A DNA stretch of 64,000 nt from Ascidia mentula (Eukaryota > Chordata > Ascidiacea > Phlebobranchia > Ascidiidae), in the NCBI GenBank assembly GCA_947561715.1, contig OX387202.1, positions 11,359,001 through 11,423,000 on the forward strand, given 5' to 3'. Both the position numbers and the translations under genes were made by a program. This document shows positions 7,089 through 42,700 of this stretch, one piece after another (within the stretch, counting starts at the first letter, position 1; each line of letters begins with the position of its first letter). Below the pieces are notes generated by a model. It did not search any database, was not told the DNA's origin, and saw nothing but the letters and a program-made list of their open reading frames with translations.

Positions 7089-11518
<4,430 letters not shown>

Positions 11519-13138: not shown

Positions 13139-16100
13139 CTACGATCTGAAGGTGCACTGGTATGAAGTGACGCATCTTCCTCCATTCCAATACGAGTTTT
13201 CAGGGCATACACAAAGGGGTGTGCAACCATACAAACGCTTGCTTACAGCTTGGTAGTGGTTGCAAACACGATTTATTTGGGGACAAAGTCTCCACACCAG
13301 GTTGCTATTACACCCTAAATACATTAATATTGGGTGTAAGAAAGATACTATAGGTTTATGTTCAACTAACCCAAAAAATGTTTAGGTTAAAAGTTCTTGG
13401 TTAGGACTCTTAACGCACAACACTCTTTGAAATCTCAAGAAAAAGACAATGCAACATATTGTTTTGAGAGAATACAAAAAGACATTTTGTAATAAATAAA
13501 GTCACAGTAAAGAAAGATACTATTCCATATTCAACAAAGTCCTGCCAACTGAACAAATAAAGTTTTCTACCAAAACTTAGAAAACCTACTTGTAACTGTG
13601 CACTCTTGTTTGGTCAAAGTCCTTCCATGCTTGGTGAATATTGCTTTACATCCACCACAGTAACTGTTAGTACATTTTGCATCTGGATGTGCGGGACATT
13701 TTTCAAGATCACATGGCAGTCCTTCGCATGACGCAACTGGTGTGCCAGGTGGACATTGGTGTCCTAAACACAAAAACTCCATTCTAGATAAACTTTACTG
13801 ATGTAAAACTTTGTAATAAGAAATTCCCATACCATATGACTACATCAACACCACAAAAAATTTTTGGTCATTTCAACATAGGAAGAATCAACAGCACTCT
13901 TAAAACATGTATATATATATTTCGTCTATAACTGATGATTCACATGATGTAAAATTATAGATGAAATATATATATCAAAAACAACAGAAAGACAAAGGAC
14001 CTAGGTTTGCTCTTATATAAATAGATAAGAATAATCAGCAAATTGGTGGTTTGAAACATGGTAACCAGAAGATCAAAATATAATACTTTATCATTCAAAA
14101 TACAAAAACAATTGTTTTGACTAAAATTATCATTAATCACCATGTTGTCAAGTGCACACACCTGGGGGCGAAGGGCATTGGTTTTTTGGAACACAGTGTG
14201 TTCCATTCCACTGGGTTTGGGAGTGACAGGCGCAACCTGATTCACCAAAAAATCGACAGAAAAGGTCCACACCGGTGTTGCATTTCCAGCCACAAGGCTT
14301 ACGGAAGAAGTATTCTTGGTTGGATGGACAAACTAAAATATAACGAATAAAGTTGTATTAAAAACTGCTCAAACTATTTATTAATTAGTAACATAACACA
14401 TGTTTTATATATTTTTTGGTTTTGTGGTGTGTTTCACCATTGCACTGGCTATATTTACACGCGCAACACACCTTAACTATTATCACTGCACATGGTTGAA
14501 TCTGGTTATGAAATTTTTTTATCATGTTATAAGTATTGAAGGTCATGGTGTTTATGTTGAAGCAGTCATTAAACCTTTACCCTTTACAGCACTTTAGCAA
14601 CTTATGTTAAGTGTCAGGTAGAATGTCTTACGTGGACATTGTGAATATGGAACACATTTCGCTTGACTGTTCCTAAAATGTCCTGCTGGACAGGCACAAC
14701 GTATTGTGCAGCGTCTCAGAAGACTGCAGGGTTTTTGTTTGTCATCGCATGTTGCATCACAAGGGGCTGCACAACTGTTCCACACCTCATTTAATGAAGC
14801 ATCACATCCTACAAGGCAAGTAAAATAGCTGTTTTTATCTTTTGGATGATCAAAAACAGGCGGCAATCCTAGGAATGTACAACAAATTCATAATTAAGAA
14901 AACTAATTAATTTTAACACGTATCTTTGTTGGTACAATGACTCTAGAACAGTAGGATATTGGCAAACCCTTGCATGAAGAAGTCATTGCTCGGCAAAAAT
15001 ACTTAAAACAGTTCAATATTTAATTATCAAGACCAAGGTTTCTCAACTGGGGTCTGCAGTGTGATGACATTTATTTTCTTTGAGCTAATAATGGGTAATA
15101 ATGCCTTAACATTTAAACTTATGGTATTGTTGTCTATGGGGAGTTAAGTAAATTGGTATGGTGGACCCAAACAATTTGGGAAACACTGGTTGTGGCGTTG
15201 AACAGATTGTACAGTTTCACAAAAATGTATGCTGCTAATTTAAATAAATTTGCCAAAACAAAAATACCATTGCATTCGTCGTCACTCTTTTTGTCATCGC
15301 CCACATAGAAAACAGCATTGCAGCCCCCACAATAGTTGCTACGGCATGTTGCTTCAGGGATATGTGGACATTCCGCATTTAGACAAGGATCCACTAAGCA
15401 ATTAACGGTTGGCACTCCAATGGCACAAAGTCCTTTAAAAATATTATTATATCTGGGTATTATTTGATTGCTCAAAGCGATTTTTATTAGCTGAAAATCA
15501 AGTAATTACCAACAATATTTCGCATTTCATTGGCTTTTTGGTAGAGAAAGATTTTTGACAGAAGAATAAAACTAAACTTGATTGTGGAAAAATTAATTGT
15601 AAACAAAACCTTATTTTCCCACTTTTACCCTGTTTAGCGTTACACACACAAGAATTGCAAAAATGTTAGCTTATCTTTACCAACCATCAAACTTTTTCCT
15701 GGAATGATATTCAACTCAATTTATATGCAATTCTGGTGATATTCAACTCATACATTGGCATAGAGCAAGTTTTAAGGCAGTTTAAGTATACAACAATCAG
15801 TTCGAATTGTCAATCATAACAATGGTTAAACAGCCAACCTGGGCATTCTGCTCTTCGAACGCAGACGCCTTTGGCATTTCGTAGATTGCCATGAGCACAT
15901 GCACAACGTTGTTTACACACTTGCAATAAACTGCAAAAACTGTTTGGTTGTGCACAAGTAGCATCACACAGTGGGGCACAGGGATCCCATACTTCATTCA
16001 GAGAACTAAAACAAGCTGAAAAATGCCAAGTCTTGTTAAAGGCATTCAATGCAAGCAAATTTGTCTGTTAGTGACTGATGCGTAAAAAGGTCATTATTCA

Positions 16101-19100
16101 TGCATCCAAAACGAATCATGTCAGCTTTCCCCGCAAGCTTTACTTTGCGTTAAACATATAATTGTGGTAAAGTCATGAAAATTTTCGTATAGCTTTAAAA
16201 ATGAAATAAAAGTCATAGTTTGTCAGAATGTTTGTAACATTTGTTGAAAAATTAAGATGCAAGTTTTGTGTGGTTGTTGCTGTTAGGCACATAGTAATTT
16301 CAAACAATTTGACCTTCAAGCACAATTAAACATTGATTTTTATATATGAATGTTTAACCTCGTATCCAACAAAATGCAATATATTTATACAAAGATTTTT
16401 TAGCAAAAAAAGATTTAAAAAACTATGTTAGTTTTTAAAAATTACAAACAATGACCACATATCACTTATTTACATACCATAACACTCGCTTCTGAGAACG
16501 CACACTTTTTGCTGATTTCGAAAATGTCCGGCAGGACAGGCACAGCGCGGGGTGCAAAAGCCATATGTGCAACTGTTTGGTGAAGCACAGCTTGCATCAC
16601 ATGGTTTAGCACAATTGTCCCAAACTTCATTCCTTGCTGAGTTGCAACCTAATAATTGCAAACCACAGAAATCAGAGAAAGCAGACAATGTTTTAAATGG
16701 ATGACCTCCATAATTTCAGTATCTTGTAAAATTTTAAAAAAAACATAATTTAATAAACTAATCTTTAACTGAGCCGAAAATTAGTTTGTTATTTTTTTTC
16801 AAAAAAGAATTATGTTAGTCATACACAATTCAAAAACAATATCAAAATATAGAGTAAATAATAAAGAACTGTTTATTTAATTAAAGTGGAAAGGTTAACC
16901 CTTTACACATCACAAAGTTTTAATACCATTGCAAAAAATATTTTCTTTGTTTTGCCAGACTGTAACTGAAAATACTAAAACAAGCTATTTTGCTTTAGCT
17001 TATTGTATAAGTGGCATACCATGACAGCTTGTAACATTCACACACACGTTTTCGCTGTTTCGAACAAGACCACTAGGGCATGCACATCTTCTGTTACAAG
17101 ACTCCTGTAGACTGCACAACTTGTTTGGTTCCTGACACGTGGCATCACATGGAGGTGCACATGTGCGGAAAAGCTCATTCAATGCATCGTCACAATCTAA
17201 TTAGACATTTGGAAAATATTACTTTGAAAAAACTTTCCTTTTTTAATTATAAACTTTATGTTGCAGGTGTTATTTGTGCAAATAATTATTAAACTATAAG
17301 CATTAACTTAACATTTGTAATACCGGTTGAAAAAAAATTAAAAATTGTTGTATTGATGATTTGAGGGAAACATCAAAATGTGAATTTAAGATTCTCTATG
17401 TGATTATTGTTATTGTACACACCAAGTGGGCATTGGTCTGCTGATACACATTGGTCTCCATCCAAGAAGGTGTTGGGTGGACAGAAGCAGCCAATCTTAC
17501 AGTCCAGTGTACATGGAACAGGTTGGTCTTTTTGTGAACACAAGGTGTTGCAACCTCCACAAGTGCTATATTGCTGGTTTCCAGGACAAGCTAAAGCACA
17601 GTGTGAATATTTAGTATAGGAAACAAATTTATGCTTTCATTACTGTTTTATGACAAACTAAAATATTTGATTGTTTTAAAATACTTGTTGTTTTTAGAAC
17701 ACTGCATTGACGAAATATATATATTCTATAAAGTAGTAGCTTGGATGATTGCGCAATAATCTAGGTCAATCCTAATATTTACCTTTTGTAAGCAATATTA
17801 TATCTGCTTTTAAAAATTATAACAAAAAGATTTATACTTTTTACTGTTTGCCATATTTTAAAATAGTAAAACTAAAAATACCTAAGAGCAAACAAGTTAC
17901 ACATTCAAAACACACAATAGTAATCTATAAATTAAAAACATGTGTGGAAATATTTACTTGGGCAGTTTTCCACACAACTGCTGCCATCCCACAATGTTCC
18001 ATCAGGACAAGTGCATCTTGGGGTGCACACAGCTGCACACAATGTCACTGCTGGGTCCTGACCACATTCCCAGATACATGAAGGGCATATATCCCATACT
18101 TGGTTTGAAGGGCATTCTTTACAAACAACAAATTGATAAATGTTAGAAAACGTCACAAATCTTTGTTTTCAAATTGCCCAGTTTCTGAAAAATGACTAAG
18201 TACATAACTGTGCACACTAAACCTTGCTTTTAACTTCGACAATTAAGAAAACACAAAGTTTTCAACAAAATAATAGAACATGTGTTTTTGAAATGAACTG
18301 CATTCAAACAAGAGGTATTTGTATATTGTAATTTTAAAGAAAACTGACCTTGTGGGCATTGATTCTCCTCAACACACTGCTCGCCATCTAAGAAAGTGTT
18401 TGGTGGACAGAAGCACCCAATCTTACAGTCCAGTGTACATGGAACAGGTTGGTCTTTTTGTGAACACAAGGTGTTGCAACCTCCACAAGTGCTATATTGC
18501 TGGTTTCCAGGACAAGCTAAAGCACAGTGTGAATATTTAGTATAGGAAGCATCTGCATTAAGATGTGTTTGCCTGTTTTGAAATACTTTTTGAAATACAC
18601 AAATTTGTGCTTTCAGAACTGTTTGTTGTTTTAGGATAAATTAATGTCTTTTGTAAAAAAAAAAAAATATTTGTGATATTGTGCATTTATACGCAATATT
18701 ACATCTGCATGTACAAATTATGACAAAAGTATTTATTCTTTTTTACTGTTTGCCACATTTTAAGATGGTAAATATAAAAATATCTGAGAGCAAACAACAT
18801 ACACATTCAAAACACACAATACCAATCTATAAATTAAAAACATGTGTGGAAATATTTACTTGGGCAGTTTTCCACACAACTGCTGCCATCCCACAATGTT
18901 CCATCAGGACAAGTGCATCTTGGGGTGCACACAGCTGCACACAATGTCACTGCTGGGTCCTGACCACATTCCCAGATACACGAAGGGCATATATCCCATA
19001 CTTGGTTTGAAGGGCATTCTTTACAACAAACAACAAATTGATAAATGTTAGAAAACATCACAAACATTTGTTTTCAAATTGCCCAGTTTCTGAAAAGTGA

Positions 19101-22100
19101 CTAAGTACATAACTGCGCACATTAAACCTTGCTTTTAACTTCGACAATTAAAAAAACACCAATGTTTTGACAAAATAATAGAATATGTGTTTTTTATAAT
19201 GAACTGCGTTTAAACAAGAGATCTTTATATATTGTAATTTTGAAAAAAACTGACCTTGTGGGCATTGATTCTCCTCAACACACTGCTCGCCATCTAAGAA
19301 AGTGTTTGGTGGACAGAAGCAGCCAATCTTACAGTCCAGTGTACATGGAACAGGTTGGTCTTTTTGTGAACACAAGGTGTTGCAACCTCCACAAGTGCTG
19401 TATTGCTGGTTTCCAGGACAAGCTAAAGCACAGTGTGAATATTTAGTATAGGAAGCATCTGCATTAAGATGTGTTTGCCTGTTTTGAAATACTTTTTGAA
19501 ATACACAAATTTGTGCTTTCAGAACTGTTTGTTGTTTTAGGATAAATTAATGTCTTTTGTTAAAAAAAAATTATTTGTGATATTGTGCATTTATACGCAA
19601 TATTACATCAGCATGTACAAATTATGACAAAAGTATTTATTCTTTTTTACTGTTTGCCACATTTTAAGATGGTAAATATAAAAATATCTGAGAGCAAACA
19701 ACATACACATTCAAAACACACAATACCAATCTATAAATTAAAAACATGTGTGGAAATATTTACTTGGGCAGTTTTCCACACAACTGCTGCCATCCCACAA
19801 TGTTCCATCAGGACAAGTACATCTTGGGGTGCACACAGTTGCACACAATGTCACTGCTGGGTCCTGACCACATTCCCAGATACATGAAGGGCATATATCC
19901 CATACTTGGTTTGAAGGGCATTCTTTGCAACAAACAATTGTTAGAAATTCAATAAAATTCAAAATATTTGTTTTCAAATCGCCCAAGCTACTGAAAAATA
20001 GCTCAGGTGCATAATTGTGCACCATAATCTTTGCTTTTAACTTTGACAACTAAAAAAACTCAAGTTTTCAGCAATAACAAAAATGTATGTTTAAATGAAC
20101 TGTGTTCAAACACCAGGTCTTTATATATTATTGTTTTGAAGGAAAAACTGACCTTGTGGGCATTGATTCTCTGCCACACACTGCTGGCCATCTAAGAATG
20201 TGTTTGGTGGACAAAAGCAACCATATTTGCAGTCCAACGTACATGCTGGTGGGTCATTTCGATCAGCACAGGCAGTGTTACAAGTTCCACAGTTGCTGAA
20301 CTGTTGGTTTGCAGGGCACACTGACAAAAGAATGATGAAGTACACAAATGTACTTTGAACAATATTTGAAAAAAGTCTTACAAAAAAGGCAATACACCAC
20401 AAAACATTTTATTTTTTACATTTGGCTCAATTTGGCCGAATATCAATTCCATTCCTTTCTTTTTTTTATTCTTAACACAGTTCCGCCTTTCAAAAAAATG
20501 TTTTAAGTTTTCTATTGTGTTGGGTGTATATGTAAAAAAAAATTAAAATTTTACCAGGGCAGTTTTCCACACAACTGCTGCCATTCCACAATGTTCCATT
20601 AGGACAAGTGCATCTTGGAGTACATTCAAGTGGACACAATGTTGCGGCTGGGTCTTGACCACATTCCCAGATGCATGAAGGGCATGTATCCCATACTTGA
20701 TTTGAAGGACATTCTTCACAAAAGGTAAGTCATTACCAGTTAAAAATATGTGATACCGTATTATTACATGTACTGATAAAAATTCTAAGTTGCCAATGAA
20801 ATGCATTAATTCCAACAAAATTTATGCAAAATATTGTCCAAAAACTTCTTTATTGAATTATATTAATTGCCTATTTCAAGACCAGTTTGAACACAAATAT
20901 CTGGGACCATATTAAGCAAATGTGAAATGATTTAAGCACTAACCAGCAGGGCAGTCTGCTTCAGGCACACATTGATCTCCATTCAGAAAGGTATTAAACT
21001 CGCAAAAGCAACCAATCTTGCATTCCAGTGTACAAATTGGTGGATTTATGCGCTGGTCACATGGGATATTACAAGTTCCACAGGTGCTGTATTTCTGGTT
21101 TCCGGGACACACTACAATATGGGTTTTATTTAAATATCACACCATTTATTTAATGACAGTCCAAATGCATCAATTTGTTTGATAATTGTTGACAATTAAT
21201 AAGTACAGAAAAAAACAAAGTTGGCATTTGGTAAAGAAACTTGGTACAAAAACACGCATATGTTTTATTTCTTTCGCCATGTTACTCAATCAATAAACTA
21301 CATAGTCTCTAAAATATGTTATTATGCAGGCATTTTTCTACTTTCAGTCACCCCAGGCATGTATAGCTTAGATCTCCATTCTCATGTTAAAAATATTTTT
21401 ATGAGATATAGTTTAAGTTTACCAGGACATGTAGTTACACAAGCGGTGCCATTCCACAAAGTGGCAAAAGGACAAGTGCAACGTGGTATGCAAAAATTTG
21501 GACAAGCAGTAGAAGCAGGATTCTGGTCGCAACGCCAAATACATGGGCTACAGGTGCTGAAAACTTGATTGGAGGGACAGCCTGAATTTGCTGTGAAAAT
21601 GCAAAAAAATTTAAACATAATGGTATTTGTGATAAGATTACATCTGCCAAAGTTTCACAGGACATAAATCTGAACTAATTCAAAAACTAAAAGCTCACAT
21701 GCTGGTGGAAGAGATAAAGACATACTGAGATATAGAGGGACATTTTAAGGCATGACTGTTTTAAAAATACACTGATAATTACTCTGTTATGTTTGCAATT
21801 GTGAATATTGCACCAAAACTATTCCAAATTAAAGCAGACAATGGCCATTAGGCATTTGGATCTTGTGCAAAAACTTGTGCCAAGAACTAAGACACTATGT
21901 GCCAACTTATGATTAGTCTTGAAGCACAAAAGTATTACTAAACTATTTTTTGAACTATATTTATTGAATTTTATAAATTCTTACCACATATAATGTCTGT
22001 AATTAGTTTTGCATAGTTTGCATTTACACACAACAACAACAAAAATCTACAGGTTGTTTTTAAATATGGCATATAAGATCTAAACAGCAGCTCACAACAA

Positions 22101-24412
22101 TTTCCAAGATTGCACGTTCGTTCCTCAGACAGATTTCCACAGTTGTCCACACCAGGGCAAAACCTTGTACGTCGCTGAACACCATTACCACAGGTTTCAC
22201 TACAATCACTCCATTGCTCCCAAGTGCCTAAAAATAATTTTGAGCATATTCTTCACCCTATTTTTGCAACCAGCAGGTTGTTGGGAAAATTTATTCTCTT
22301 TAATACCAAAACCTACATAAAGATATCATGTTTTTGTTTATAAGTAATATAATGTAATTAATTTGAAATTAAGGTCATAAGTTAACTGTTTTTGTCAATT
22401 GTCCATTTTGAGTGAAAAAAACAGAACTATACAATTTTAATTTTACCAAACTTTTCACACAAGAAGTAATACAACACAAAAAACAATGGACAGGGCTATG
22501 AAAGCATATGTGTCTGAAAATAACTTGAGGCCCATTTTTATTTACTAGGGCATGTGGAACTGCATTGAAATCCATCCCAGTAAGTTTGTGCGGGGCAGTC
22601 ACAGCCACGTTCACACGGTGCAGCGCAGGTAATGTTTGGATTTTGTTCGCATGCCCAGCGACATCGTCTGCAATCCACTGTTATCAGGTTGGAAGGACAA
22701 ACCTCTGCACACAAAATTTCTGTTTTGAGCAATTTGTTTCAACCTAGGTTATCTTTAGTGAGATAATAGTTTTGATTATAGAGAAGTTTTATATACATCA
22801 TGGTTGTATGGGACAGTGCAAAAAGGTACAATTCTATATGTAACAAGTAGCTAGGAAAGTCTGGGGCACAGCAACAACCTTATCAGTAAACAGTCTTGAA
22901 AAGTTAACTGTAGCCTTGCATTTAAATAAAATCATCACTAATTTGCATAATCAACTGCTATGCATATGTATTATAAAAATAATTGTAAAGGTTATTTAGT
23001 ATAAGCGAACCAAAGGATAAGTATGCCATTGGTACGCAGCCAGTCTTGCTGGGAAGTGATGGGTTAAGACAGACCACGTTGGATTTTAGTGCCAACATGG
23101 CCATGCTGGCAAACCCAGTTCACAGAATGTTTCCAATTAAAATTGACAGACTTAAGTACCCTGTTTATTATGCAAATGCAAAAGAATCACTGCACCCTTG
23201 ATTTGTCAATGTTTTTGAAAAATAACTTGGATTGTCTCAAACTAAATCTCAACATTAGCAAAAGAAGTAACCTGGACAGGCGTCAGCACACCATGATCCA
23301 TTCCACAGGGTATTTCCTGGACATGCACAACCCCATCTGCAAGCATAGCCTGTGCAGTTTTTTGATTCTTGTCCACATTCCCAGATACATCTGGGACATC
23401 TCATGTAGACTTGACTTGAGGGACATGCTGCAAAATTGAAGTACTATTGTATCAAACATATCAAAACTTTTCATGAAAAGGCCAAGGAAATGTTTGTTAT
23501 GTACATGTAGTATTTCACTATGTGATTCTGATGCAAAAAATGTAAAGGTTTAATTTAAATTTATGTTGGTGATATATTTGTTATGACAACACATTTCATT
23601 TACCAACCATAAACATAATTTAACAGCACTTCTGTTGCAATTTTTTGACAATTTTCTTATGTGTTCAAAACAGCTCAAAACATCATCAATGTTCGAGTTA
23701 AGTTTGATTGACATCGCATTGCCGGAGGAGCGGAGATAACCTTTTGTAGCTAGAACCAAAACACCGAAAAATCGCTGGAAAAGCCTGCGGCATGATGTGT
23801 CTGACGTATGGTGCTTATTTATAGGTTTGAAGCGCAAACAATTCCACGTCGCGCTGTTTAGATTTGATGCTCGACGTAAAAAAAATGTCTTACTTAAAGT
23901 TAAGTTTACTTTGGCCTTACGGGAAATTCCCTGTTTGGAAAGTTGTGCCACGAATCAGGTGTTTTAAACTCGGGGGCGTGCCGCTTAATGTAAAAATTAG
24001 GAACACATCTTAGAAATGAAGACGATATGACAGCCCAATGATAAACAATGTCAAATGACAAATTAGCTTTTTCGCTCGCGTTAAACTATTCACCCGATAA
24101 AAAATTACACTTGTCTTCAGGGCTTCCGAAACTTGTTCGGCGGCCTGATTTAAAAAAAGGAATTTATACTAACTAAGTGAACATCTTGCGTATGGTGCAT
24201 ATTACCCCTACATAAGTCAATCCCATAGTTTGAGGAGCCCTGGTCTACAGAAACACTATTTAGCGGTTATCAGTTTCAAAAACGTTAACCAAACCAAACC
24301 TTTAATCGGTGTCAATATATAAATTCTTACCAGGTACACCGGCATAACTTATGGTTATCAGAGTGCTCAGAACCGCTAAAGCAACAATTCCAAATACGTT
24401 TGCCTTGTTCAT
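13139..24412 (-). CDS. Secreted multi-TIL protein with TSP1 and CGGC modules
   Basis: A 22-exon minus-strand gene of about 1,186 residues. Exons in transcript order: 24412-24331, 23427-23272, 22704-22546, 22227-22096, 21590-21423, 21111-20944, 20713-20555, 20320-20153, 19922-19764, 19422-19255, 19018-18860, 18516-18349, 18116-17958, 17590-17423, 17196-17020, 16648-16478, 16015-15839, 15432-15268, 14808-14632, 14332-14162, 13763-13590, 13314-13139. Exon 1 encodes a signal peptide (MNKANVFG, then a hydrophobic run ending SYA). Every later internal exon encodes one module and is phase 1 at both ends: 18 TIL modules, one TSP1 repeat (exon 4) and two CGGC modules (exons 18 and 21). TIL domains, usually with 10 cysteines, occur in protease inhibitors and in VWF/mucin/SCO-spondin-like proteins. 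There is no VWD domain and no transmembrane segment, so I infer a secreted matrix, mucus or inhibitor protein. The exact function is unknown. Confidence 0.85.
13590..13763 (-). CDS. CGGC cysteine-rich module exon 2
   Basis: Second copy of the non-TIL module. It has the same cysteine pattern (PCDLEKCPAHPDAKC, then NSYCGGCKAIF and a late cysteine), followed by a donor at phase 1. It precedes the last TIL exon at 13139-13314, which ends the protein at TAG. Confidence 0.6.
15268..15432 (-). CDS. CGGC cysteine-rich module exon 1
   Basis: The exon encodes a module unlike TIL: a C-x3-PC-x4-CP block, then ATCRSNYCGGCNAVFY and a final cysteine. A second copy lies at 13590-13763 (TNSYCGGCKAIF). I do not recognise a named domain with confidence; similar NYCGGC motifs occur in secreted invertebrate proteins beside Kunitz or TIL modules. 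The exon is phase 1-1, so it was probably inserted by exon shuffling. Confidence 0.6.
17423..20320 (-). repeat. Tandem intragenic duplications of a two-exon TIL unit (about 0.9 kb)
   Basis: Four consecutive A-B exon pairs: A exons of 159 bases at 17958-18116, 18860-19018, 19764-19922 and the more diverged 20555-20713 (just beyond this span), and B exons of 168 bases at 17423-17590, 18349-18516, 19255-19422 and 20153-20320. The period is about 902-906 bases. The three younger A exons differ at only one to three bases by eye. The introns are also nearly identical over hundreds of bases (for example 18530-18840 against 19436-19740), so the copies are recent or kept alike by gene conversion. The A module carries SCIWECGQDP, the B module TCGGCNTLC. 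Confidence 0.9.
22096..22227 (-). CDS. Thrombospondin type-1 repeat exon of the TIL gene
   Basis: This 132-base exon encodes GTWEQWSDCSETCGNGVQR and then RTRFC, GVDNCG and ERTCNLGNC. It has the Trp-x2-Trp ladder, the CSxTCGxGxxxR signature and six cysteines of a TSP1 repeat. It sits between TIL modules 2 and 3 and, like its neighbours, is phase 1 at both ends. TSP1 repeats commonly bind glycosaminoglycans or other matrix partners. It is the only such repeat in the gene. Confidence 0.85.
24118..24242. mobile_element. Possible short hAT-like relic in intron 1 of the TIL gene
   Basis: CAGGGCTTCCGAAAC at the left end resembles the reverse complement of the right end, CAGGGCTCCTCAAAC. The 125-bp span has no coding capacity. 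No target duplication is visible, so this rests on the ends alone. Confidence 0.3.
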
Positions 24413-27400
24413 TCTAAAACCTACAAACTCTGCAAAAACACAACCTAGAAACTTCAGTATAAAAAATCAATGTAACAAAAAGCTTCGATAATCTTTTAAT
24501 GAAACTTCGTTGCGAAATAAATGAAAATCAAAATACCACTTCGAACTTAATTCCATAAAAACCTAGCCGCAGGCAAATGTTAAATTAAGACCACGAATCT
24601 GTTTATTCATGAAATATGTACATGGACTATAATAACTAATATATATTTGAGTTTGACCTTGCTGTTTTAAAGTCTAGTGAAACTGAAATGCAACAAGTAT
24701 AAACTAAGCTTTGTATTAACTGTAGACAAAACTCAGAGAATATATAGCTTATTTTTTATCGTATGTCTTAAATAGGTAAATTGTAATGCTATAAACGACC
24801 ATCCATCCATCCATCGCATTCGCAAGTAACAAAAACGTTAAACAGGATAACATTTAAAGCAAGATCACTTTTATTTCATTTTGTTTGTGATGCAAAAACC
24901 GGAAACGGCTTGCCATTAAGTCGTGGCATAAAATGACAAGTGACAAATTGCGGCGCCGGCATCTCCCAGCCAATTTCCATTTTAAGCTTTATTTGGAAAT
25001 AATTACAAAAAGATTGATCACGATATTTTGCCTAATTTTTTGCAGAAAGTTATGCATCACTGAAATGTCGACAGACATTGCAGCTTTCAATTTTAATTTA
25101 TGTGCTTTATCTATACTCATTTATAAAGCTTTATATGACAAATCAACTCTTGTTCCAGACGTTTTAAAATGGAGAGATACTTGGAAAAAAAAATTAAGTT
25201 CGATTTTGCCAAAAGGTTGTCTTCACCCGCGAAAACAGGCAACAAATTAAAGTTGTACGTGATTAGCTAAGGTACATTCTAAGGTACATTTCTTCGGGGT
25301 AAAACATACAGTATACGGATAACAGAATATTACACAAAAATCAAATCTAGCAGAAAACTCTTGGTTAGGCTTTAAATCATACGCCGCATCGAAAATATTA
25401 TTTAAAAACGGATTCATTGGCGTTATTAGTTTCTATGCAGACAAGGTATCAGGGAATAACCGTAGAAAGTGCTTAAATGTGTTATTTTCTTTGTACAACT
25501 AAGTTTTGACGATGAAAAATTCGAATTTTGTAAATAGACATCGCGCCGCCATGACTTTGTGGTAAAAATGCTGTATGACATATTTTTCTTGTACTTTTCA
25601 TTCAAATTACAGCAATATAGTCAGCTACTGAATGGCGACATTTGTAACCACTCGGTGGCGCTAAATACGTCACAAGGCAGTCCTAAATATGCCAGACATC
25701 ATGTCACCGATAAACTCAAACTTTTTGGTACAGAAAATGGAAGTACGAACCGGGAAAAACTAATCAATTTAATTTTATTAATAGCAAGATTTTGTATTTA
25801 CAAATGTAAAGTGGCCAAAGTGCAACCCTGTTTTACTATGTTTCGACGGCAAGTACAGCAAGTTAGAGCAGCAAAAAAAAACTGCATTAAGAACTAATAA
25901 AGTGAATGAATTTAAATTGAAATGGAATACTTTGTAATTTAATGTTGATGTGTGTAGTAGCGTATGTTTCTTGAGCTCGTGTTTTGTTTCTCTTTTCTCT
26001 GTCGTTGTTGTAGTTGTTGCAATAATAAAAAAAAAAAAAAAAAAAAAAAAGACATTATGTCACCGATTGAAACTTTCGTGTTTTTCAAATGGGACGTCGC
26101 AGTATAGCCTATTTATCAAAAATTCTACCCCGAATTACTTCGCAGTAATTTCTGCTACCTATCTACATTAAAATTGACAAATGGGAAAATGAAATGTTGA
26201 AGCGTTCGATTACTTGCCTTAAAATTATTAATGCGCTATCTGACTCAGAGTATCTCCAATACTAGTAAAGCGACAAAAAACGAACCTTCATTTACTAACA
26301 GTCCGACTCCAAATAAGGCGCAACAAAATATGTACAAACTTATTCTCTGTTTCTTACCAGTTTAACTATGTGTAGATCTCTTGACAATATATTTGCCGGC
26401 TACCCTATCTTGCAGCTTACAAAACGTCTCACTGATTAAGGTAACTAAAAATCCTCAATGATTTATTCGTACAGTATACAGAGTATTTTTAAGCCTTAAT
26501 ATTTATGTGGTGATCAGGTTGTTAACATAACAACATACATGGTTGAAAAATGTGATGGCTTATAAAGGACAAAGGTGCAATAGAAGAGAGAAAGAATAAT
26601 TAGAGGTTCCAAGCCGTGGTTGTTATCGGCGGTGCAGGTACGAGTTTGGTAATTGTAGAACAAAATGGAAGTAAACAGACGAGAAAACGACACGCAATAC
26701 ATGCAACGGGGTTTGGCGACAATTGGCGGTGACTTTAAACAAAATGCGGTTACTACAAGGATGTGTAAAAGTGCGATTACTTTTTAACGACACGAGACGC
26801 TACAATGTTATGTTAAACCACTTGCGTTTATCCTTAATTTTGAGGAAACACATAAAATATATTTCTAATTTTATTGTATAGTTGTTTGTGTTAATTTTGG
26901 TCGTTGATAATATGACGAAGTTGTCGATGTTCTGAGCAGCCTAAAATGTTAAAAAATTCACTCAAGCGTGGTGTGATTTTATAGTTTTTCGGCTTTCTTA
27001 CATAGGACCGAATCCGAATATTAGTAGATTTATTTTAATATTCGACCGAATTCAAGTATGGTCAACGCATCCTAAATTCAATGTGTTTTATTCAAATTTA
27101 AATCACGCATTGGTGTTATGATTCATGTACGAAAATATTGAACGTAGCAAACATGGCAAATTTAGCTCACGAACAATGACAAAAAAGAGAACTATATCAC
27201 TGATTTTTCAGCCAAATCCAAATCTTTTCTGTGGTGGCACATCTCATGTTTCTTGTTGATATTTGTCGTATTAGTCATGCAAATTAAAATCATTTGGTTG
27301 GGAATACCGAACCGTTTTTTGTCTTGTTGTATTTTGTGTTTCGACATGGATCGATGGTTGCATTACTCACGTGATCCAGACTGCAGACACAGAGTCAGGT

Positions 27401-33700: not shown

Positions 33701-36700
33701 TGTAACTGAAGTCAACGTTCGTTATAGCAAAATCAGAAAATTGGTTGACGCACATAAAGAAAAGTAAGTCTACTCCGCATACAGATTATTTGTTCTATTT
33801 TTTGATTGGTCGGTGGAACAGTGGCTTCTATTTTTTGATTGGTCGGTGGAACAGTGGCAGAACTATGTTCTTGCATTAAAGTGATTTAGAAAATTGTTTC
33901 CTTAAAATTGAAATACAAATTCCCAACAAAAATAAGTTAAATAAACCAGTGGCTCTCAACATATTTTCACTGCAAAATCGTAAAATTTCAAACATTGGGG
34001 TAAAAAGTATGCACTTCGGACCAGAATAAATCTATTTAATATGGAAATAATATGTATGGGGGAGATTGGTAAACAATTACAGCAAAATCATTGATTTAAA
34101 CCATGAAGTATAAAATATTTTGGGTAATATCCGCCAAAACTAACTATTACCAAAGCCAAGTTTAACTTTCTAGCGGACCAGCGGATTTCTAATTCGTAAC
34201 CTTCAAAGAAAGAACTGCAGCAAATTGTTTTATTTACTGATAAAACAACCCTTGGTATTTTTCATCAAACAGAGTTAGGACGAAAATGAACCAACTGTTG
34301 GATTCTTGCACTGGCTACCAAACCCCACTGGACCGATGTGAGGAGGCAATACATTTCTTTAGAGACCTACAGGAAAAGGTGAACTTGGAGTTGGAGAAGG
34401 CCACCATTCTACATGACAAGAACTTGAAACTGAGGAAAAAGTTGATAGCAAAGTAGGTGGTTTATTTGGGCTTCACAGATAGCATATTTTCTTTGGAAAG
34501 TTGTGTTGTGTGCATGCACACTTTTTTACAAAGTTGTGTAATGCCTATTAAATTGTATCAATTTTACAACACAAAATACCAATGCATTTGTGATTCACTT
34601 CTGAGCAAATTTCAAATTAAAACGATTTGTATTTGCTTACTTGAAAATTGAGCATATTGTTACGTTCTTGCTTGTTAGATGCCAGAAATGAATTATAAAT
34701 GCATTGATATTTTGTATTGTAAAAGTGTTCGTTTTCCGTCGTTTCTAAGTCTGAACTCTCTGTTACAGACATGAAGCAAAAAAGCCCCCAGCGAGGCCCT
34801 CTGCTCCCAAACCGAAACAAACCACCAAAGCAGACCCGAAAATTCCAGCGGTTCCAGGGCTTGGGTTGTCAGCCAGTGAGCTTAGTGCCCTGGCAGGTGA
34901 TGTTAACGACGAATTTAACGATCCAGAATTCCTTAGATACCTTCAGAAGACCTCTGGATTAACACCAGGTTTGTTAGCACACATAAAGTCCCGTGTCCTA
35001 GTTTAAACCAAGTCCTAAACCACTTGAATAGTTGATGGTGGCACATTTTATAAAAACGTTTAATATATGTATTAATAATATTAACCTTCAATTACGGTGT
35101 GTTTGATGACAAAAAAAACGTTTGAAAAGTTTTATGAAGTGACTGCAGCGAGATTTTTAGAACATGCAGTTAATGTTACATGGATATATTCGTAAAGTTG
35201 CCACCATTATTTTAGGAGCATTACCTACCAATTTACCACCTTCCACGGGTGCTTTGCCACCGTCAGTTACCATGGGACCCACGTATCCATCACCTCATGA
35301 CCAAGCTCATCAACCACCAATGTCTGCGGTCAGGGCCAGAATGAACCAGCAAAGACCACCTGCGAGCCAACAGCACCAATTACCACACCATCCAACACCA
35401 CCACCGCAAAATCTTCCCATTTCGCAACCAGCAAGTTACCAACCACAAGGACCAATGTCACCAAGTCAGGTTGTACCAATGTCCATGCCCCAACATCAAC
35501 CAGTTAATCCACCACCACCACAAGGAACCATGCCACCAGGACAGCCAGTTCCATTTTCGCATGGTTACCAACCATCTACAAATCAACTGCCACCAAACCA
35601 ACAAGTATCAAGCTCCATGTACCAACCTTTACCACATAATGTTCAGTCAGTACCGTCATTGAGTACAGACACCCAAAGAGAAATACCATATACGCAACAT
35701 GCTGGTCAACACAACCAACTTCCACAACAATCGCTGCAACAGCGACATCATCAGTACCAACAGCCCGATTTTCAACACCAGCCAATGTCTCAACCACATC
35801 ACCATCAGCGGCAAATACAGGTTGGTCAAAACCATAACAGCCAACAGCAGCAGTTTTACGAACCAAATCCACAACACCATGTGGTTCACCAAGCCCCGAA
35901 AGTACCCCCACCAAGTTACCAACTGGTAAACCAGCCAAGCACGGCTGTACCTACCTCTTACCAACAAGCGCCCGTGAACCATCCGAATGTTCAAGGAGTT
36001 GTGCAAAGTTATCCACCTGGCCAAAGAATCTCCCAACCTTTGCATTCTTATGTTGAACACCCGCAACCTACTGTGGTGTTGCCAGGGCAACAGCAGCAAT
36101 ATCCCCAAACAATGTCGCCCGGAAGTGGTGGTAACCAGCATCATGGTATTACTGCTACTGCGTATCATGGTGTTCATGGCCAACCTGGGCATGGTGTCAG
36201 ACCAATCACCACTCCAGTTGCTCAACATACTTCTCAACCTATCAATGCATATGGCAACAACCAAATAAACCCAAACCAAAATGTGTATCCCGTTGTTTCA
36301 TCGCCCATGTCGCAATCGAATTACCAACAGCAGAAACCATCCTACCATACACAAAACCAATTTTCGCATGGACAAGAACCAACTCCGCAGCAACAGTTTA
36401 ATCCAAACCAAACACATCAACCAGCAATAACAATTCAAAGGGCTGGTGTGCCGCAACAACACCATGGCAATATGTATGCAACAGGAACCACCCAAGGTGC
36501 ATACAGTCCAAGACCAAACGTTTCTGTCTCACAAGGCCCCTACCATCCACCAGTAACTAATCCCATAAACAGCGCACCACCCCAAGTGCGACCATCTGGA
36601 CACAATCAACCTCAAATGGCCAGCTATGGACAAGGTACCTACCAACAGACACCATCCCAAACCCCAATAACTCAAACGAATCCTGGTCAGTTGCCCAACG

Positions 36701-39700
36701 CAATGGTTCAACCTCGACAGCGATTTCAAGGACCACAACAACAAGTTCAACGTCCACCAACGCAAATTCGTGCACCATTTGCTAACCAACCAGCCACGCA
36801 AAGACCATTGCATCCTGGTCAACAAGTGCCTTTGCGGCCAGTTCAAGACACTGTTAATTCTAAACTTCCACAGGGGATGGTTCCAAATAATTACCAACCC
36901 AGACTGGCATCGAACAAACAACAACCACAAGGAATGAACCAAGTCCAACATCGCTCTGCTCAAAGTGTGTCGCAAACCCAACAGATACCGGTACAAGGAA
37001 TGGTATCTAATCAACAGCAACAACCAGTTCAGGGCGTCAGACAAAACCAACACCAACCAGCTATTCCAATGCCACAACAGCCACTTCAGCCATCTCTGCG
37101 TGGAGCTGGGCCTGTGCAACCATCTCAACAGATCAATCAACCTCACCACGGGGTACAACTACCTGCAAATGCTGCCCCACCGAATCAACAAGCCATGCAG
37201 CCCAGCACTGTTAACCCAGGTGCGCAACCAGCACGCCCAATACAACCAACCCAACAGCCAGTACCCCAAACTGTAAATCAACCAACCAACTTAACTTCAA
37301 GCAATCATGCGCGAATACCGGCCTCTCAGCCACCGCTACACGACGCCCAAACCACAGGACCCAGGCAACCACAAAAGCCGGCCTACCAATCTAACACTGG
37401 TGGGAAACCACCCACACCACCAACTGCCATTGCGCAGCCACTTAAGCCAACAGTGGTTGGTGCAAAGAACGTAGTCCCAGTACTCGAACCAGTAAAACCA
37501 AGTGCAGATCTGGCTGGTTTGACTTACACACCGCAACCAATACTTCAACCATCCGTTTCGAGCACATCGGCGGACGAACTTCTTTCTGCCAGCCCCGAAA
37601 ACCCAATAACCGGTTTACCAGCACAAAACAACCCGGTTAGTATGCGTTGTAATTTCCTGAACACTTTGTCAATTTCCGTAATATCATACAGTGTGTTTTT
37701 AATAAGTAATGTATCCAGTACGTGCAAAAATTTGTGGTTGTCTTAAATTTAATTATATTTTTTGCCCAAATCTGGTTTCAAGAAGATGGCAGTTGCGCCA
37801 TTGTTGTTTTACCATAGAAATTCCGACCCGTGTGTCATAATAAGTATCATTCCAATGTATATTTTACGAAACTAACCCAATAAAATAATTTGTTAATGCA
37901 GCCCGATAAGTAACTTTTGTTGCGTGACTTCAAGATCCAGGCAGAAACGTGTATACCTGAATCAAAGGGCAAATAAAGTACTTGGCATATGTCTCTGCAG
38001 ATGTTGGTTCCAGTGATTGTGGACGACCAGGAAGAAACTATGATAGTTCGTCGATTCGAGGGGGTTCCCTACAAGGGCGAGGCCGACATCATGAAGTTAA
38101 AAGCCGATACGGAAGCTTACCAAAAGATGGTCTCGTCACTTTTAAACAAACAACCAGGATCACTTTGCCAGCTTGACAAGTGAGACAACATTGACTTTTG
38201 TTACTTGTTGGGAGAAAAATACTGTTCTTAGCTACCGAAGGTGTTCCTTCGTGTGAGTAAACTTGTATTTATAGAGGACAAAAGTGCCTAATACCTATAG
38301 TTAAAATGTTAATGCAGTTCGTATTTAACTGTGCTGTTCTTTAATTATACTTTCAAACTTGATAATCTTGCACACAGGACCATTGTCACAACTTAATAGG
38401 TCTCAGCTTTTCACCATAAAAAATATTATGGGCCCCCATTACGTATACATGGTTGATCCTGCCTGTTACCAAAGCCTTATTCAAACTGAAAACTTATTAA
38501 ATTCATGTTCAAGTTTACTTGGTATTGTATAATTGTGAGAAATAAACGTACTTTGCTTTTCAACTTGATTTGCTTTTCAGGGACTGGAAACAGCTTTCGG
38601 ATATGCAGGAAAAGCACGCTCGTCAGCTCTCTACTGCCATCGGGCGGTGCTCGTCGTACAAGAACAGGTTTCAGGACATTCTGCCGTTCGACCAAAGTCG
38701 CATTGTGCTGAAGGAAACGAAGGACGATTACATTAACGCTAGTCTCGTGGATGGGATTTCCCCGTTTTGTCCGCGTTTTATAGGTATGGAATGTAATTGA
38801 CCTGTACTGCACAGGAAAAGTAGCTTCTCATATACCGGTATTGCTATGACAACGTCTTTGTAGCCCTACAAAATAGTATTTAGTATAAAATTGTGTGTTG
38901 CATTTAAGGGTTAAAAGAGTGTTAGCGTAATTAGAAGCACACTTTGCTACATTATGTTGTAAAACTGCAGATAAACGAGTATTTTGTAATCTATCCGCAG
39001 CGACACAGTCGCCGCTGCCTTCTTCATCTTCGGATTTTTGGACAATGGTTTTCGAACATCAGGTCACCCTGATCGTAATGCTTGTCTCCAAGAACGACGT
39101 ACCCAAGGTAAACAAACAACAAAAAGGCTTACAAAAAGTTTAACCGAAATAGTGTGGAACTTACGTAGAAGCAATAGGGCCAAGAGTAGGCCCTGATTGG
39201 TCAAAACAGTGGCGCTGTTTGCATTTGTTGTTTTTGCTTTGAATTTTTTCATGTCCTATACTGGTAGCTTTGTCTCTACTGGCATTATTGGACATGGTTA
39301 AGGTTGATGCTACAGCCATGAGCAAGCACATTCGTATGTCTTTTGTAAGCATAACTATAAGCAAGCAATGAAATGCATCTTCTTGTGAACATTGTCATGG
39401 CCGTTTCGTATTATGTTGAAATAATACACAATGTTTCATTACAATTTTTCCAGAAATGCGCCAAATATTGGCCGGATGACCGCAACATTCCTCAAAAGCA
39501 CGGATCTCTCCACGTTACTTTCACCACAAGCCGAGTTCACGGGAGTTACATTGAACGCACTTTTACCTTGAAACACGAGAAAAGCAGTTTACCGAGATCC
39601 CTCACCCAGCTACAATACACTGCTTGGCCTGAACAGTACGAAAAACATCCTCAAATTGAAATTAGATGTTTGGGTTCCTGTCGGGGACTTACTATACGCA

Positions 39701-42700
39701 GTTACAATATTTTGGAACTAATATTTTTACAACCCAATTTTTTACTTCACCATGACCCATTTTGTCACAACTATCCAACTCAAATCCTTACTAGTGATGT
39801 TATCCTTGACATCGACTTACTGTTTGGTGGCAATAATTTGAAAACTGCCCCTTGTTTTTAATCTCCAACGCATGAGTGTACTTACCGTCACACCTTTCTG
39901 CGCAATCAACCAACATAAGATTTCAGTGGTTTGAAAATAACCATTTTAACTACGATCTTTATTGTAAGTTTTTTTCTGTTGAGTTTTTATTAATATGCGC
40001 GACCTTGACCCACTTAATGATAGTTCAACATATCCTCGAATACTCACTAAAGTTATTTTATTTATGTCTGCAGTGGGTTACCGGTCTCTACCCCCGACCT
40101 GCTGTCGTTCATGCGTGTCGTTGGCAGCTTCCACGTACAACAACGGAACCTACAGTGGCCAATCGTCGTCCATTGCGAGTATGCAGCGTTTTTAAACGCC
40201 GAAAAATTTGATTTTATACATTTTTATCAAATTAATTGTATGTGGCATTTGTTAAACATGTTGTCCTTGTTTTTCCCCCGCAGAGACGGAGTAGGTCACA
40301 CTGGTACGTTCTGTGCAACGTACACCTGTGTGCAAGAGCTGGAAGCGGGACAGGATATTCCCCCTGTTTTGGACGTCGTAGGGAAAATGCGAAGGAGACG
40401 AAAGTACATGTTGCAGGAAAAGGTGGATAAACTGCTTTAACTTCTCATATGATGATCGCAAATTAAATTATTTGTTTACCACAAAACAAGTAAGTTGGCA
40501 ACACTTTTGCAACCCCTTAATGCTCTCTGCTCTCACAGGCCCAGTTGAAGTTCGTATACGACCTCGTCTATTTGCACGCAGCGGACTTGCTCCGACAGCG
40601 TGGTGTTGAAATAGAAAGGAGAAGTTCGCAAACACCTACACCAGCACAGGTGGTAAGTGACAACAAAAAATACAAGCCGGGCAATGGTAATGTTTGGGTA
40701 AATGTCAATTTCTGTGTTTTCTTAAAATCAGCAAAAATGTCTGCTGTCATATCTCAGCATTCACATGGCAAGTGAATTCTGTCGATTCGCAATTGATAAA
40801 CTCATTTCTACCAACATTGTGGTCTATTGCTTCATAAGCAAACCGAACTGATCACATTGTATAAAAAACAGTTAAACTAAATCCAATATTCAGTTGCAAA
40901 TATTTGTTTGCAGCCAAATACAGCCCTTTTCCATAGCCATATATTTGTATACATCGCTGTATGTTTGTGATATTGCTAGATGCAGTAATGCTTAACTATG
41001 TGGTACTACTGTTCAGGCTTCACCAAGCCACAGGAAAGACGGCAGCAACTTTGACGTGTTCGGCTCGGGAGCACTCTCCACCATTCGTGCCAGCGTGGAA
41101 AAGATGACAGTGAAATCTGGGGACAAGGTAAGCGTCACAAATTCATTGTTTTGTCAAAAGGTAGTGAAACATATATAATCGTCATAGAGATAGTAGTGTA
41201 CAATTCGTTTGTTCAAGGTAATGTTCTTACGAGTATGGAACAATAGCTTTGTGTTAACCGTCTTTTAAAACGTACTTTTACGGTCCACGCAGGAAGACGG
41301 TGGTGAGCAGGTGTTTTGTTTGTCGTTGGTGGTGTTGTAACTAACTTTGCGTTGTTTGTAATTTGCCAAGCGTGTTGTACATCATATTCCGTGTTACTTT
41401 ATTCCCGCAAGCTAATGGGGTAATCATAATGAACAAAAAACGTTCCTATATGTTGCAATGTTGGTGAATTTGGACAGCAGACACAACTGACATAATACTG
41501 TCCTGTCGTTTTGCCCCCTGGCTTCGACTTGACGCAATAACTTCAGTATAGTTCAACCGTAATAGCATTTTAAACAATAACTTCAGTGAACTGATCAGTA
41601 TTTAACTACCGAGCCAGCCCATATGGCTCGTGAAAAAATGAAAAAAAAACAACAATGAAACTGTGGCATGTGTGAATAATCGTGATCGGTCTTCGAACTC
41701 TGCTATCTGTCAATTGATAAACTCAAGCACGTATGGTCTGCACGTCTCTTAGCAGGGAATTTATGCCCACAATATTGTTATTGCTGCTGGTTGTGACGTA
41801 TATGCTGGAAGCCATATGATTTTGTATGCAAACGTCCCACCGTGCTGTTGTGTATGTTGATTACGTTTTATTGTGTTGGTGTTCACACAAAGCCTAGATG
41901 CAAATCTTGGTCGTCAATTGATTTAACTATAGTTGACATGGAACACCCAACCTCATTAAAAAGGCTCTGTCTGACACTAGTTCTGATCGAATGACAATTT
42001 AGGACAGTGCTACTCAAACTTTCTCATTCAGCGTACCGATGGCAGCTTTTTCAGGATACCGAGTACCTGTCCTAACTTGTAAAAGGCAAAATAAATTGTT
42101 CTGTGAATCTAGGGAAACAGCTACATCTAATATTGTTGCATAATCACAAACTCCGGTCTAAGCAACAAGAAACACCTATATTCCCGAAAAAAGTGTGTTT
42201 CGTAATGCAGGATGCAAAACTGCTGAAAAATAATAAAGTGTACCGACAGGCAACTGCTGAAGTTCCAGCAGGGTTACATGTATAACAGTTTGAGTAGCAC
42301 TGCTTTAGGAAACCCGATTCTAAGTCATTTTGGATAATATATACATTATTTTCCGACAAATCTCGACGTTTCAGTAAACAAGATTACAACCCTTTGAAAA
42401 CCAAACCCAAAGCTAATAACTTTTTGCATTGTTGAAACACAAGGGTATTAAATTGCACCAACAAGTGTTTTCCCTTGCTTTCAGAACCCTACGCCTCCGA
42501 CGACGACACCGACAACACCGAATAACCTTCCCATTGCCGCTGCTCCACCAGCTACCTACAACAACATTGACACCATCTCCACAGTTCAAGACATCCCTTT
42601 AGTCCCAGCAGCGCCCAATTCTGTCACAGACATAGCTACGTTAATTGGCAACAATATGAGCGACTTGGTGCAGGGTACAATGACATTGCCGTCACCAGTA

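What the first reader, a model, noticed from the sequence alone, without database searches (positions are those of the whole stretch)
13139..24412. Undescribed-looking secreted protein: 18 TIL modules, one TSP1, two CGGC modules
The reconstructed protein has a signal peptide and about 1,150 residues of disulfide-rich modules. Each TIL module I counted in full keeps 10 cysteines. TIL arrays usually alternate with VWD domains (VWF, mucins, SCO-spondin), but there is none here. The mixture of three subfamilies (A: WECGQDP; B: TCGGCNTLC; C: CDATC) hints at different binding or inhibitory sites along a rod. Secreted protease-inhibitor, mucus or tunic matrix roles are all possible.
Basis: partly seen in the sequence, partly recalled or inferred. 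Interest (0 to 1): 0.75.

Follow-up and report, generated by a model that had tools for sequence, protein, structure and literature searches.

The report
Sea-squirt secreted TIL-module array gene
A sea squirt carries an intact-looking gene for a long secreted protein made almost only of small disulfide-rich modules, some with loops like those of protease inhibitors, and related genes lie on the same chromosome; what it does has not been tested.

Summary
On the minus strand, 24412..13139, 22 exons join through 21 GT-AG introns, all phase 1, into one frame of 1186 residues: signal peptide, 18 TIL modules, one TSP1, two eight-cysteine CGGC modules. Correction: 16 TIL modules have ten cysteines; exons 20 and 22 have eight, each lacking one known disulfide pair by spacing. 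The genome matches Ascidia mentula, chromosome 6. It is not a piece of a VWD protein: that chromosome holds 59 of 119 TIL matches (13 in this gene) and 0 of 117 VWD matches, and carries other VWD-free TIL arrays. No library searched names the CGGC module. For an inhibitor reading: three-residue C5-C6 loops have a hydrophobic or basic middle residue in 16 of 32 array modules and 1 of 13 VWD-linked ones (rule chosen after a first look). Against: cysteine spacing departs from a published inhibitor motif. Best reading: a rod of inhibitor-like heads (0.45); main rival: a purely structural rod. A new variant of a known kind, of moderate interest.

The parts
24331..24412 (-). exon 1: start codon and signal peptide (MNKANVFGIVALAVLSTLITISYAGVP), donor gtaaga, phase 1
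   Evidence: mean Kyte-Doolittle 2.18 over residues 6-23; no signal-peptide program was run
23272..23427 (-). exon 2: TIL type A, 10 Cys, C5-C6 loop TGYA
22546..22704 (-). exon 3: TIL type A, 10 Cys, loop AAP
22096..22227 (-). exon 4: TSP1 domain, 6 Cys
   Evidence: TSP_1 36.3 bits, E 6.3e-9 for the exon alone
21423..21590 (-). exon 5: TIL type A, loop PNF
20944..21111 (-). exon 6: TIL type B, loop TLE
20555..20713 (-). exon 7: TIL type A, loop PLE
20153..20320 (-). exon 8: TIL type B, loop TLD
19764..19922 (-). exon 9: TIL type A, loop ATV
19255..19422 (-). exon 10: TIL type B, loop TLD
18860..19018 (-). exon 11: TIL type A, loop AAV; exons 11-12 are a near copy of exons 9-10, intron included (99.1%)
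18349..18516 (-). exon 12: TIL type B, loop TLD; protein identical to exon 10
17958..18116 (-). exon 13: TIL type A, loop AAV; protein identical to exon 11
17423..17590 (-). exon 14: TIL type B, loop TLD
17020..17196 (-). exon 15: TIL type C, loop SLQES
16478..16648 (-). exon 16: TIL type C, loop TYGF
15839..16015 (-). exon 17: TIL type C, loop SLLQV
15268..15432 (-). exon 18: CGGC module, 8 Cys, spacing 8-4-4-7-4-2-15; no named family found
14632..14808 (-). exon 19: TIL type C, loop SLLRR
14162..14332 (-). exon 20: divergent TIL, 8 Cys; C2 and C6 absent by spacing
   Evidence: no Pfam TIL match alone; pairs with a TIL module of the 18.85-Mb array, support 87/84
13590..13763 (-). exon 21: CGGC module, 8 Cys, same spacing as exon 18
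13139..13314 (-). exon 22: divergent TIL, 8 Cys; C3 and C5 absent by spacing; stop codon
   Evidence: TIL 22.5 bits alone, under the cut-off
24413..24429 (-). 17 bases between an acceptor-like TTTTTGCAG and the ATG: end of a 5' UTR intron or a possible spliced-leader acceptor
   Evidence: sequence printed; interpretation is inference

Best explanation
An intact-looking gene of the ascidian Ascidia mentula (chromosome 6) for a secreted protein of about 1,160 mature residues: 21 small disulfide-closed modules joined by linkers of mostly 2-4 residues, so probably a stiff rod. It most likely works as a multi-headed, standard-mechanism serine-protease inhibitor: the B modules (exons 6, 8, 10, 12, 14) offer C5-T-L-(D/E)-C6 loops with Leu at the presumed P1, the A modules more variable loops, while the C, CGGC and TSP1 modules serve as spacers or binding parts that place the inhibitor at a matrix, tunic, mucus or egg-coat surface. 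The A-B pair has been multiplied by recent tandem duplication, raising the number of heads. Shown: gene structure, modules, absence of VWD, related arrays, loop contrast, high identity of A-B copies. Inferred: secretion, rod shape, inhibition, place of action.
For: One open frame with all-phase-1 exons. TIL match 1.3e-90. Three-residue C5-C6 loops with a middle residue in LMFYWKR: 16 of 32 in VWD-free array modules, 1 of 13 in VWD-linked TIL modules of the same genome; middle Glu or Gln 1 of 32 against 8 of 13. The B loop CTLDCKIGC resembles CTMQCRIGC of the chymotrypsin inhibitor 1ccv and CTRECKKGC of LL-TIL_mut1, 8j3q (alignments). PMC4567993 (section read) places the protease-binding loop between C5 and C6, with three active-site residues. 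Linkers are 2-4 residues at 18 of 20 junctions.
Against: The cysteine motif printed in PMC4567993 for the TIL peptides compared there (CX8-9CX3-5CX3-4CX6-10CX3-6CX3-5CX1CX11-13CX5C) is not met strictly by A, B or C: A and B have 2 residues between C2 and C3 and 10 between C8 and C9, A also 3 between C9 and C10; C has 10 between C1 and C2. VWF TIL stretches also have three residues between these cysteines and match a B module. In A modules with three-residue loops the middle residue is Ala, Thr or Asn in 5 of 6; C modules and exon 2 have 4-5-residue loops. B loops are nearly invariant. The loop contrast (Fisher p 0.015) treats modules of one gene as independent, its rule was chosen after one search had been seen, and 10 of 28 VWD-linked stretches gave no match; in the 20 VWD-linked stretches fetched afterwards it is 1 of 5. 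No transcript, protein or activity data.
Confidence: 0.45

Rival explanations
1. Structural rod: a disulfide-rich extracellular scaffold of tunic, mucus or egg coat, in which TIL, CGGC and TSP1 modules are stiff building blocks and no module inhibits a protease.
For: 198 cysteines in 1186 residues and linkers of mostly 2-4 residues; near-identical A-B repeats, as in structural repeat proteins; spacing outside the published inhibitor motif; [quoted passage not shown]
Against: Inhibitor-like C5-C6 loops in the VWD-free arrays but rarely in the VWD-linked TIL modules of the same genome.
Confidence: 0.35
2. Recognition or ligand-binding scaffold (egg coat, allorecognition or microbe binding) whose variable A loops are contact sites.
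For: Loops of A modules vary most (PNF, PLE, ATV, AAV, AAP, TGYA); TSP1 and unnamed CGGC modules could bind glycans or proteins (inference).
Against: No polymorphism data; A exons 9, 11 and 13 are 98-99% alike.
Confidence: 0.12
3. The exons belong to two or more genes, or the gene is not expressed.
For: No RNA evidence here. 14 of 21 introns hold AATAAA or ATTAAA in this AT-rich DNA, while the first such signal after the stop lies about 530 bases on.
Against: 22 exons join in one frame with no internal stop, every junction phase 1 and GT-AG, a single signal-peptide exon at the 5' end; introns of 226-903 bases leave little room.
Confidence: 0.08

Closest known systems
Ascaris-type / TIL single-domain serine-protease inhibitors (1ccv, BSTI 1hx2, chymotrypsin/elastase isoinhibitor 1eai, LL-TIL)
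   Same: TIL module with 10 Cys; three residues between C5 and C6 in 11 of 18 modules; B loop CTLDC is like CTMQC and CTREC
   Different: 18 TIL modules plus TSP1 and CGGC in one chain; shorter C2-C3 and C8-C9 spacings in A and B; no activity shown
SCO-spondin
   Same: many TIL modules with TSP1 repeats in one secreted chordate protein (PMC8487547 passages)
   Different: no VWD, EMI, LDL-receptor A, FA5/8C or cystine-knot domain listed for the 1186-aa protein, and every exon is taken up by another module; one TSP1 only; two CGGC modules
VWF and gel-forming mucins (VWD-C8-TIL)
   Same: TIL module; a B module aligns with a TIL stretch of the VWF chain 7wn3 (E 0.13)
   Different: no VWD or C8; no VWD match on this chromosome among 117 genome-wide; C5-C6 loops differ from VWD-linked TIL modules of this genome
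Macrostomum adhesive protein ap2, C-terminal part
   Same: TIL and TSP1 modules together in that part (PMC8621496 passages)
   Different: a far larger protein with repeat motifs and an N-terminal part holding VWD, C8 and LDL domains; no CGGC module mentioned in the passages seen
Other TIL, TIL+CGGC and TIL+TSP1 arrays of the same genome (C70:13.95, 15.46, 18.83-18.87; C69:9.96 Mb)
   Same: VWD-free TIL arrays; type C modules of three chromosome-6 arrays group together (95/97); CGGC modules up to 58% identical to exon 18; two TSP1 stretches beside TIL at 15.46 Mb
   Different: no match above 49% identity to the A-B unit; no TSP1 found by tblastn in the fetched stretches other than the 15.46-Mb one

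Membership tests
Pfam TIL (PF01826) | score over the curated cut-off | tested here: met
   16 stretches, 297.8 bits for the protein; exon 22 alone 22.5 of 24.5 bits and exon 20 no match, so not met alone for these two of 18
Pfam TIL (PF01826) | ten cysteines forming pairs 1-7, 2-6, 3-5, 4-10, 8-9 (as stated in PMC4567993, passage) | tested here: met
   ten cysteines in 16 of 18 modules; exon 20 lacks C2+C6 and exon 22 lacks C3+C5, each one whole pair. The pairing itself cannot be tested here
TIL serine-protease inhibitors | three-residue binding loop between C5 and C6 | tested here: inconclusive
   11 of 18 modules have it, 5 have 4-5 residues, exons 20 and 22 lack C6 or C5; VWF TIL stretches have it too, so it does not discriminate
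TIL serine-protease inhibitors | published cysteine spacing motif (PMC4567993) | tested here: not met
   A and B differ at C2-C3 and C8-C9, A also at C9-C10, C at C1-C2
TIL serine-protease inhibitors | inhibition of a protease | not testable with these tools
   needs recombinant modules
VWD-C8-TIL proteins (VWF, mucins) | VWD and C8 domains | tested here: not met
   Pfam lists only TIL for the joined protein (that scan also missed the TSP1, so the stronger point is that each exon is filled by another module); no VWD match on C70 among 117 genome-wide
SCO-spondin | EMI, VWD, LDL-receptor A, FA5/8C, cystine-knot domains | tested here: not met
   with the same caution
Pfam TSP_1 | score over the curated cut-off | tested here: met
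   exon 4 alone 36.3 bits, cut-off 21.6; not listed when the whole protein was scanned
Any named family for the CGGC module | match over a curated cut-off or to a solved structure | tested here: not met
   Pfam: none over cut-off for 10 modules (2, 8), best a sub-threshold IBR_1 at 17.1 of 27 bits; NCBIfam 0 of 3 at E 1; PDB none at E 1 with a profile of 15 modules

The most novel reading that the evidence does not exclude
Chromosome 6 of this ascidian is the main seat of a family of VWD-free TIL arrays, several with CGGC or TSP1 modules, in which TIL modules have been multiplied into polyvalent protease traps on a rod, with a two-headed A-B unit recently copied in the present gene and an unnamed eight-cysteine CGGC module as a regular partner: a tunicate counterpart of the known multi-headed Kazal, Kunitz and pacifastin inhibitors.
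Probability: 0.3. Interest if true: 0.55.

Novelty: new variant of a known kind. Interest (0 to 1): 0.4.

Why it matters
TIL modules are known as single-domain inhibitors and as parts of VWD proteins. A VWD-free array with inhibitor-like loops, with related arrays on the same chromosome, would show how tunicates build polyvalent inhibitors or matrix rods, and gives a small, directly testable two-module unit (exons 9-10). The CGGC module, with 29 matches in this genome at E up to 1 and named in none of the libraries searched, deserves a family entry.

Tried and rejected
A first set of exon borders was off by one or two bases at many exons and gave frames with stops; corrected. A fragment of a VWD protein was considered and rejected. 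A split into two genes was considered and thought unlikely, not excluded. Structure prediction of the CGGC module could not be run. CGGC relatives outside this genome: none in phages, none confirmed in prokaryote contigs; no eukaryote collection was on hand, so presence in other animals is untested. The genome-wide TSP_1 search scored only the best 150 of 1616 candidates and does not list even exon 4, so it was not used to judge where TSP1 occurs; tblastn on the fetched stretches was used instead. The TIL tree has few columns: 19 of 30 inner branches are open and subfamily A is unresolved.

Papers. Searches were seen as listings with starts of abstracts (one found none; one found one fungal paper; one found one paper, on limpet adhesion). 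Passages only: PMC8621496, PMC11109543, PMC4567993, PMC8487547, PMC9265791, PMC2527998, PMC7401272, PMC4224354. One section read: section 5 of PMC4567993. None of what I saw describes this gene; the library is open-access only.

Rows dropped. In the loop test the stretches L006 and L008 (loops TAT, TAT) were left out because the nearest VWD match is over 10 kb away; with them the VWD-linked count would be 1 of at most 15. 'VWD-linked' means a VWD match within about 5 kb, judged by eye. L014, L022-L025 and L029 were not in the array set. Modules identical up to C8 were counted once.

Full report
WHERE IT IS. The window is G000:C70:11359001-11423000. The mitochondrial contig C79 encodes COX1 with 18 AGA/AGG codons that fall where COX1 has glycines (positions judged from recall of COX1), as in the ascidian code; that the frame is open does not by itself tell this code from table 5. 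C79 is 19,461 bases long. The Ascidia mentula paper PMC11109543 gives a 19.46-kb mitochondrion (abstract) and chromosome lengths (passage). The nine large contigs met agree with them: 27.92, 19.88, 23.17, 22.72, 21.17, 19.87, 19.66 and 15.45 Mb match, and one is 22.34 here against 22.35 there. The total is 195.8 Mb in 79 contigs here and 197.0 Mb in 95 scaffolds there. I take the species to be Ascidia mentula; C70 is then its chromosome 6.

THE GENE. On the minus strand an ATG at 24412 begins a signal-peptide exon. Twenty-one further exons follow down to the stop at 13139. Every intron is GT-AG and of phase 1; the joined frame has 1186 codons and only the final stop. Introns are 226-903 bases. 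Sixteen ten-cysteine TIL patterns lie on the minus strand of the window, none before 13000 or after 24500; the plus strand has none, and 200 first-order Markov sequences made from the gene span have none. There is an acceptor-like TTTTTGCAG 17 bases before the ATG, which could end a 5' UTR intron or be a spliced-leader acceptor; that ascidians trans-splice leaders is recalled, not from a call.

MODULES. Order: signal, A, A, TSP1, (A B) five times, C, C, C, CGGC, C, D, CGGC, T. Pfam finds TIL in 16 stretches (E 1.3e-90) and TSP_1 in exon 4 alone (E 6.3e-9), though not in the scan of the whole protein; the whole-protein scan is therefore not a perfect negative, but every exon is accounted for by a TIL, TSP1 or CGGC module. 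A PDB sequence search with a shortened protein (968 aa) found thrombospondin-1 for exon 4 and the inhibitors 1ccv, 1hx2 and 1eai for TIL stretches. Sixteen TIL modules have ten cysteines. Exon 20 lacks C2 and C6, exon 22 lacks C3 and C5 (spacing, alignment). PMC4567993 gives the TIL pairs as C1-C7, C2-C6, C3-C5, C4-C10, C8-C9 (passage), so each divergent module lost exactly one pair. That suggests that the closed fold is kept, on two cases only. Each module has an even number of cysteines, 198 in all. Between the last cysteine of a module and the first of the next there are 2-4 residues at 18 of 20 junctions, 9 before the first TSP1 cysteine and 7 before exon 21; hence the inferred stiff rod.

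RECENT DUPLICATION. The A-B unit is about 900 bases. Between exons 9-10 and 11-12 the exons are 98.1 and 98.8% and the intron 99.1% identical; exon 13 is 98.7-99.4% like 9 and 11, but the intron after it only 81% and exon 14 92.8% like its counterparts. Such a patchwork fits unequal crossing-over or gene conversion. A genome search with the A-B unit gave 16 matches at E up to 1e-5, 13 in this gene; the best elsewhere is 49% identical.

RELATED ARRAYS WITHOUT VWD. Of 119 TIL matches in the genome, 59 lie on C70, which is 10.8% of the bases; 13 of the 59 are in this gene (list, recounted). Of 117 VWD matches none lies on C70. Only the best 150 candidates of each search were scored (of 311 and 215), so the counts are lower bounds. 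Other arrays on C70 lie at 13.95 Mb (11 TIL modules in the stretch read), 18.83-18.87 Mb (TIL and CGGC, several copies), 15.46 Mb (three TIL modules) and 7.30 Mb; a further TIL+CGGC array is at C69:9.96 Mb. With exon 4 as query, tblastn on the window and the 16 stretches finds TSP1 only in the window and, twice, at 15.46 Mb (E 8e-6 and 0.08; one further match at E 0.7 is a TIL module): that is a second TIL+TSP1 place on the chromosome. Type C modules of three chromosome-6 arrays form one clade (95/97), B modules another (96/94), and exon 20 pairs with a module of the 18.85-Mb array (87/84); A is unresolved.

THE CGGC MODULE. Both copies have eight cysteines with spacing 8-4-4-7-4-2-15. The genome has 29 matches at E up to 1, the last ten with E above 0.001. 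I aligned 15 modules, two of them from this gene; the eight cysteines, one alanine and one glycine are invariant in them. No library named it: Pfam none over cut-off for 10 modules, NCBIfam 0 of 3, PDB none, phages none, prokaryote contigs none.

INHIBITOR OR SCAFFOLD. PMC4567993 (section 5) puts the protease-binding loop between C5 and C6. I compared these loops within the genome. VWD-free arrays: 45 distinct modules from 11 stretches (one gave no match), 32 with three-residue loops, 16 of these with a middle residue in LMFYWKR. VWD-linked: 19 distinct modules from 28 stretches (10 gave no match), 13 with three-residue loops, 1 with such a residue. Middle Glu or Gln: 1 of 32 against 8 of 13. 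Fisher p is 0.015 for the first contrast; modules of one gene are not independent, and the rule was chosen. In the 20 VWD-linked stretches fetched later the count is 1 of 5. In the present gene 11 of 18 TIL modules have three-residue loops and 6 of these have Leu in the middle (five B modules and exon 7). The B loop resembles those of 1ccv and 8j3q. Against an inhibitor: the published spacing motif is not met strictly by A, B or C, VWF also has three-residue loops, and 5 of 6 A modules with three-residue loops have Ala, Thr or Asn in the middle. I put 0.45 on inhibition by at least the B modules and 0.35 on a purely structural rod.

NOVELTY. No description of this gene was found in the paper searches, which cover an open-access library only and were seen as listings and passages. 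TIL and TSP1 are known domains; the VWD-free array with CGGC modules is a new arrangement as far as these searches go. I file it as a new variant of a known kind.

SURROUNDINGS. Of 9 long open frames elsewhere in the window scanned with Pfam, 3 matched: an aminotransferase (8892-9299, plus), a protein-tyrosine phosphatase (40051-40437, plus) and a septin (56106-56480, plus). None is related to the array.

Noticed in passing
L053 (G000:C71:9366501-9373000), and C71:8.77-9.74 Mb: TSP1 repeats at an exact 168-base period in one uninterrupted frame: 30.6 copies, 96% matches, in a frame of 2002 aa within the stretch (open at its 5' end); many similar long frames across about 1 Mb. A very homogeneous TSP1 megarepeat family without introns in the repeats.
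   Followed up: partly
G000:C72:9223521-9223670: A TSP1 match inside an open frame of 3597 aa.
   Followed up: no
L022 (G000:C69:7050833-7052144): CGGC modules after a stretch that looks by eye like a WAP four-disulfide domain, so the CGGC module may partner with more than TIL; not tested with Pfam.
   Followed up: no
L016-L019 (G000:C70:18.834-18.872 Mb): Several tandem copies of TIL or TIL+CGGC module groups, with an open frame of 460 aa with a cysteine-rich end, perhaps a mobile element, at 18863911-18865290 between two of them (by eye).
   Followed up: no
L026 (G000:C70:15457447-15459579): Three TIL modules beside two TSP1-like stretches (tblastn E 8e-6 and 0.08; one scored TSP1_ADAMTS 21.8 of 23.8 bits): probably a second TIL+TSP1 gene on the chromosome.
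   Followed up: partly
window 35161-37743, +: An open frame of 861 aa without a Pfam match at E 0.01.
   Followed up: no
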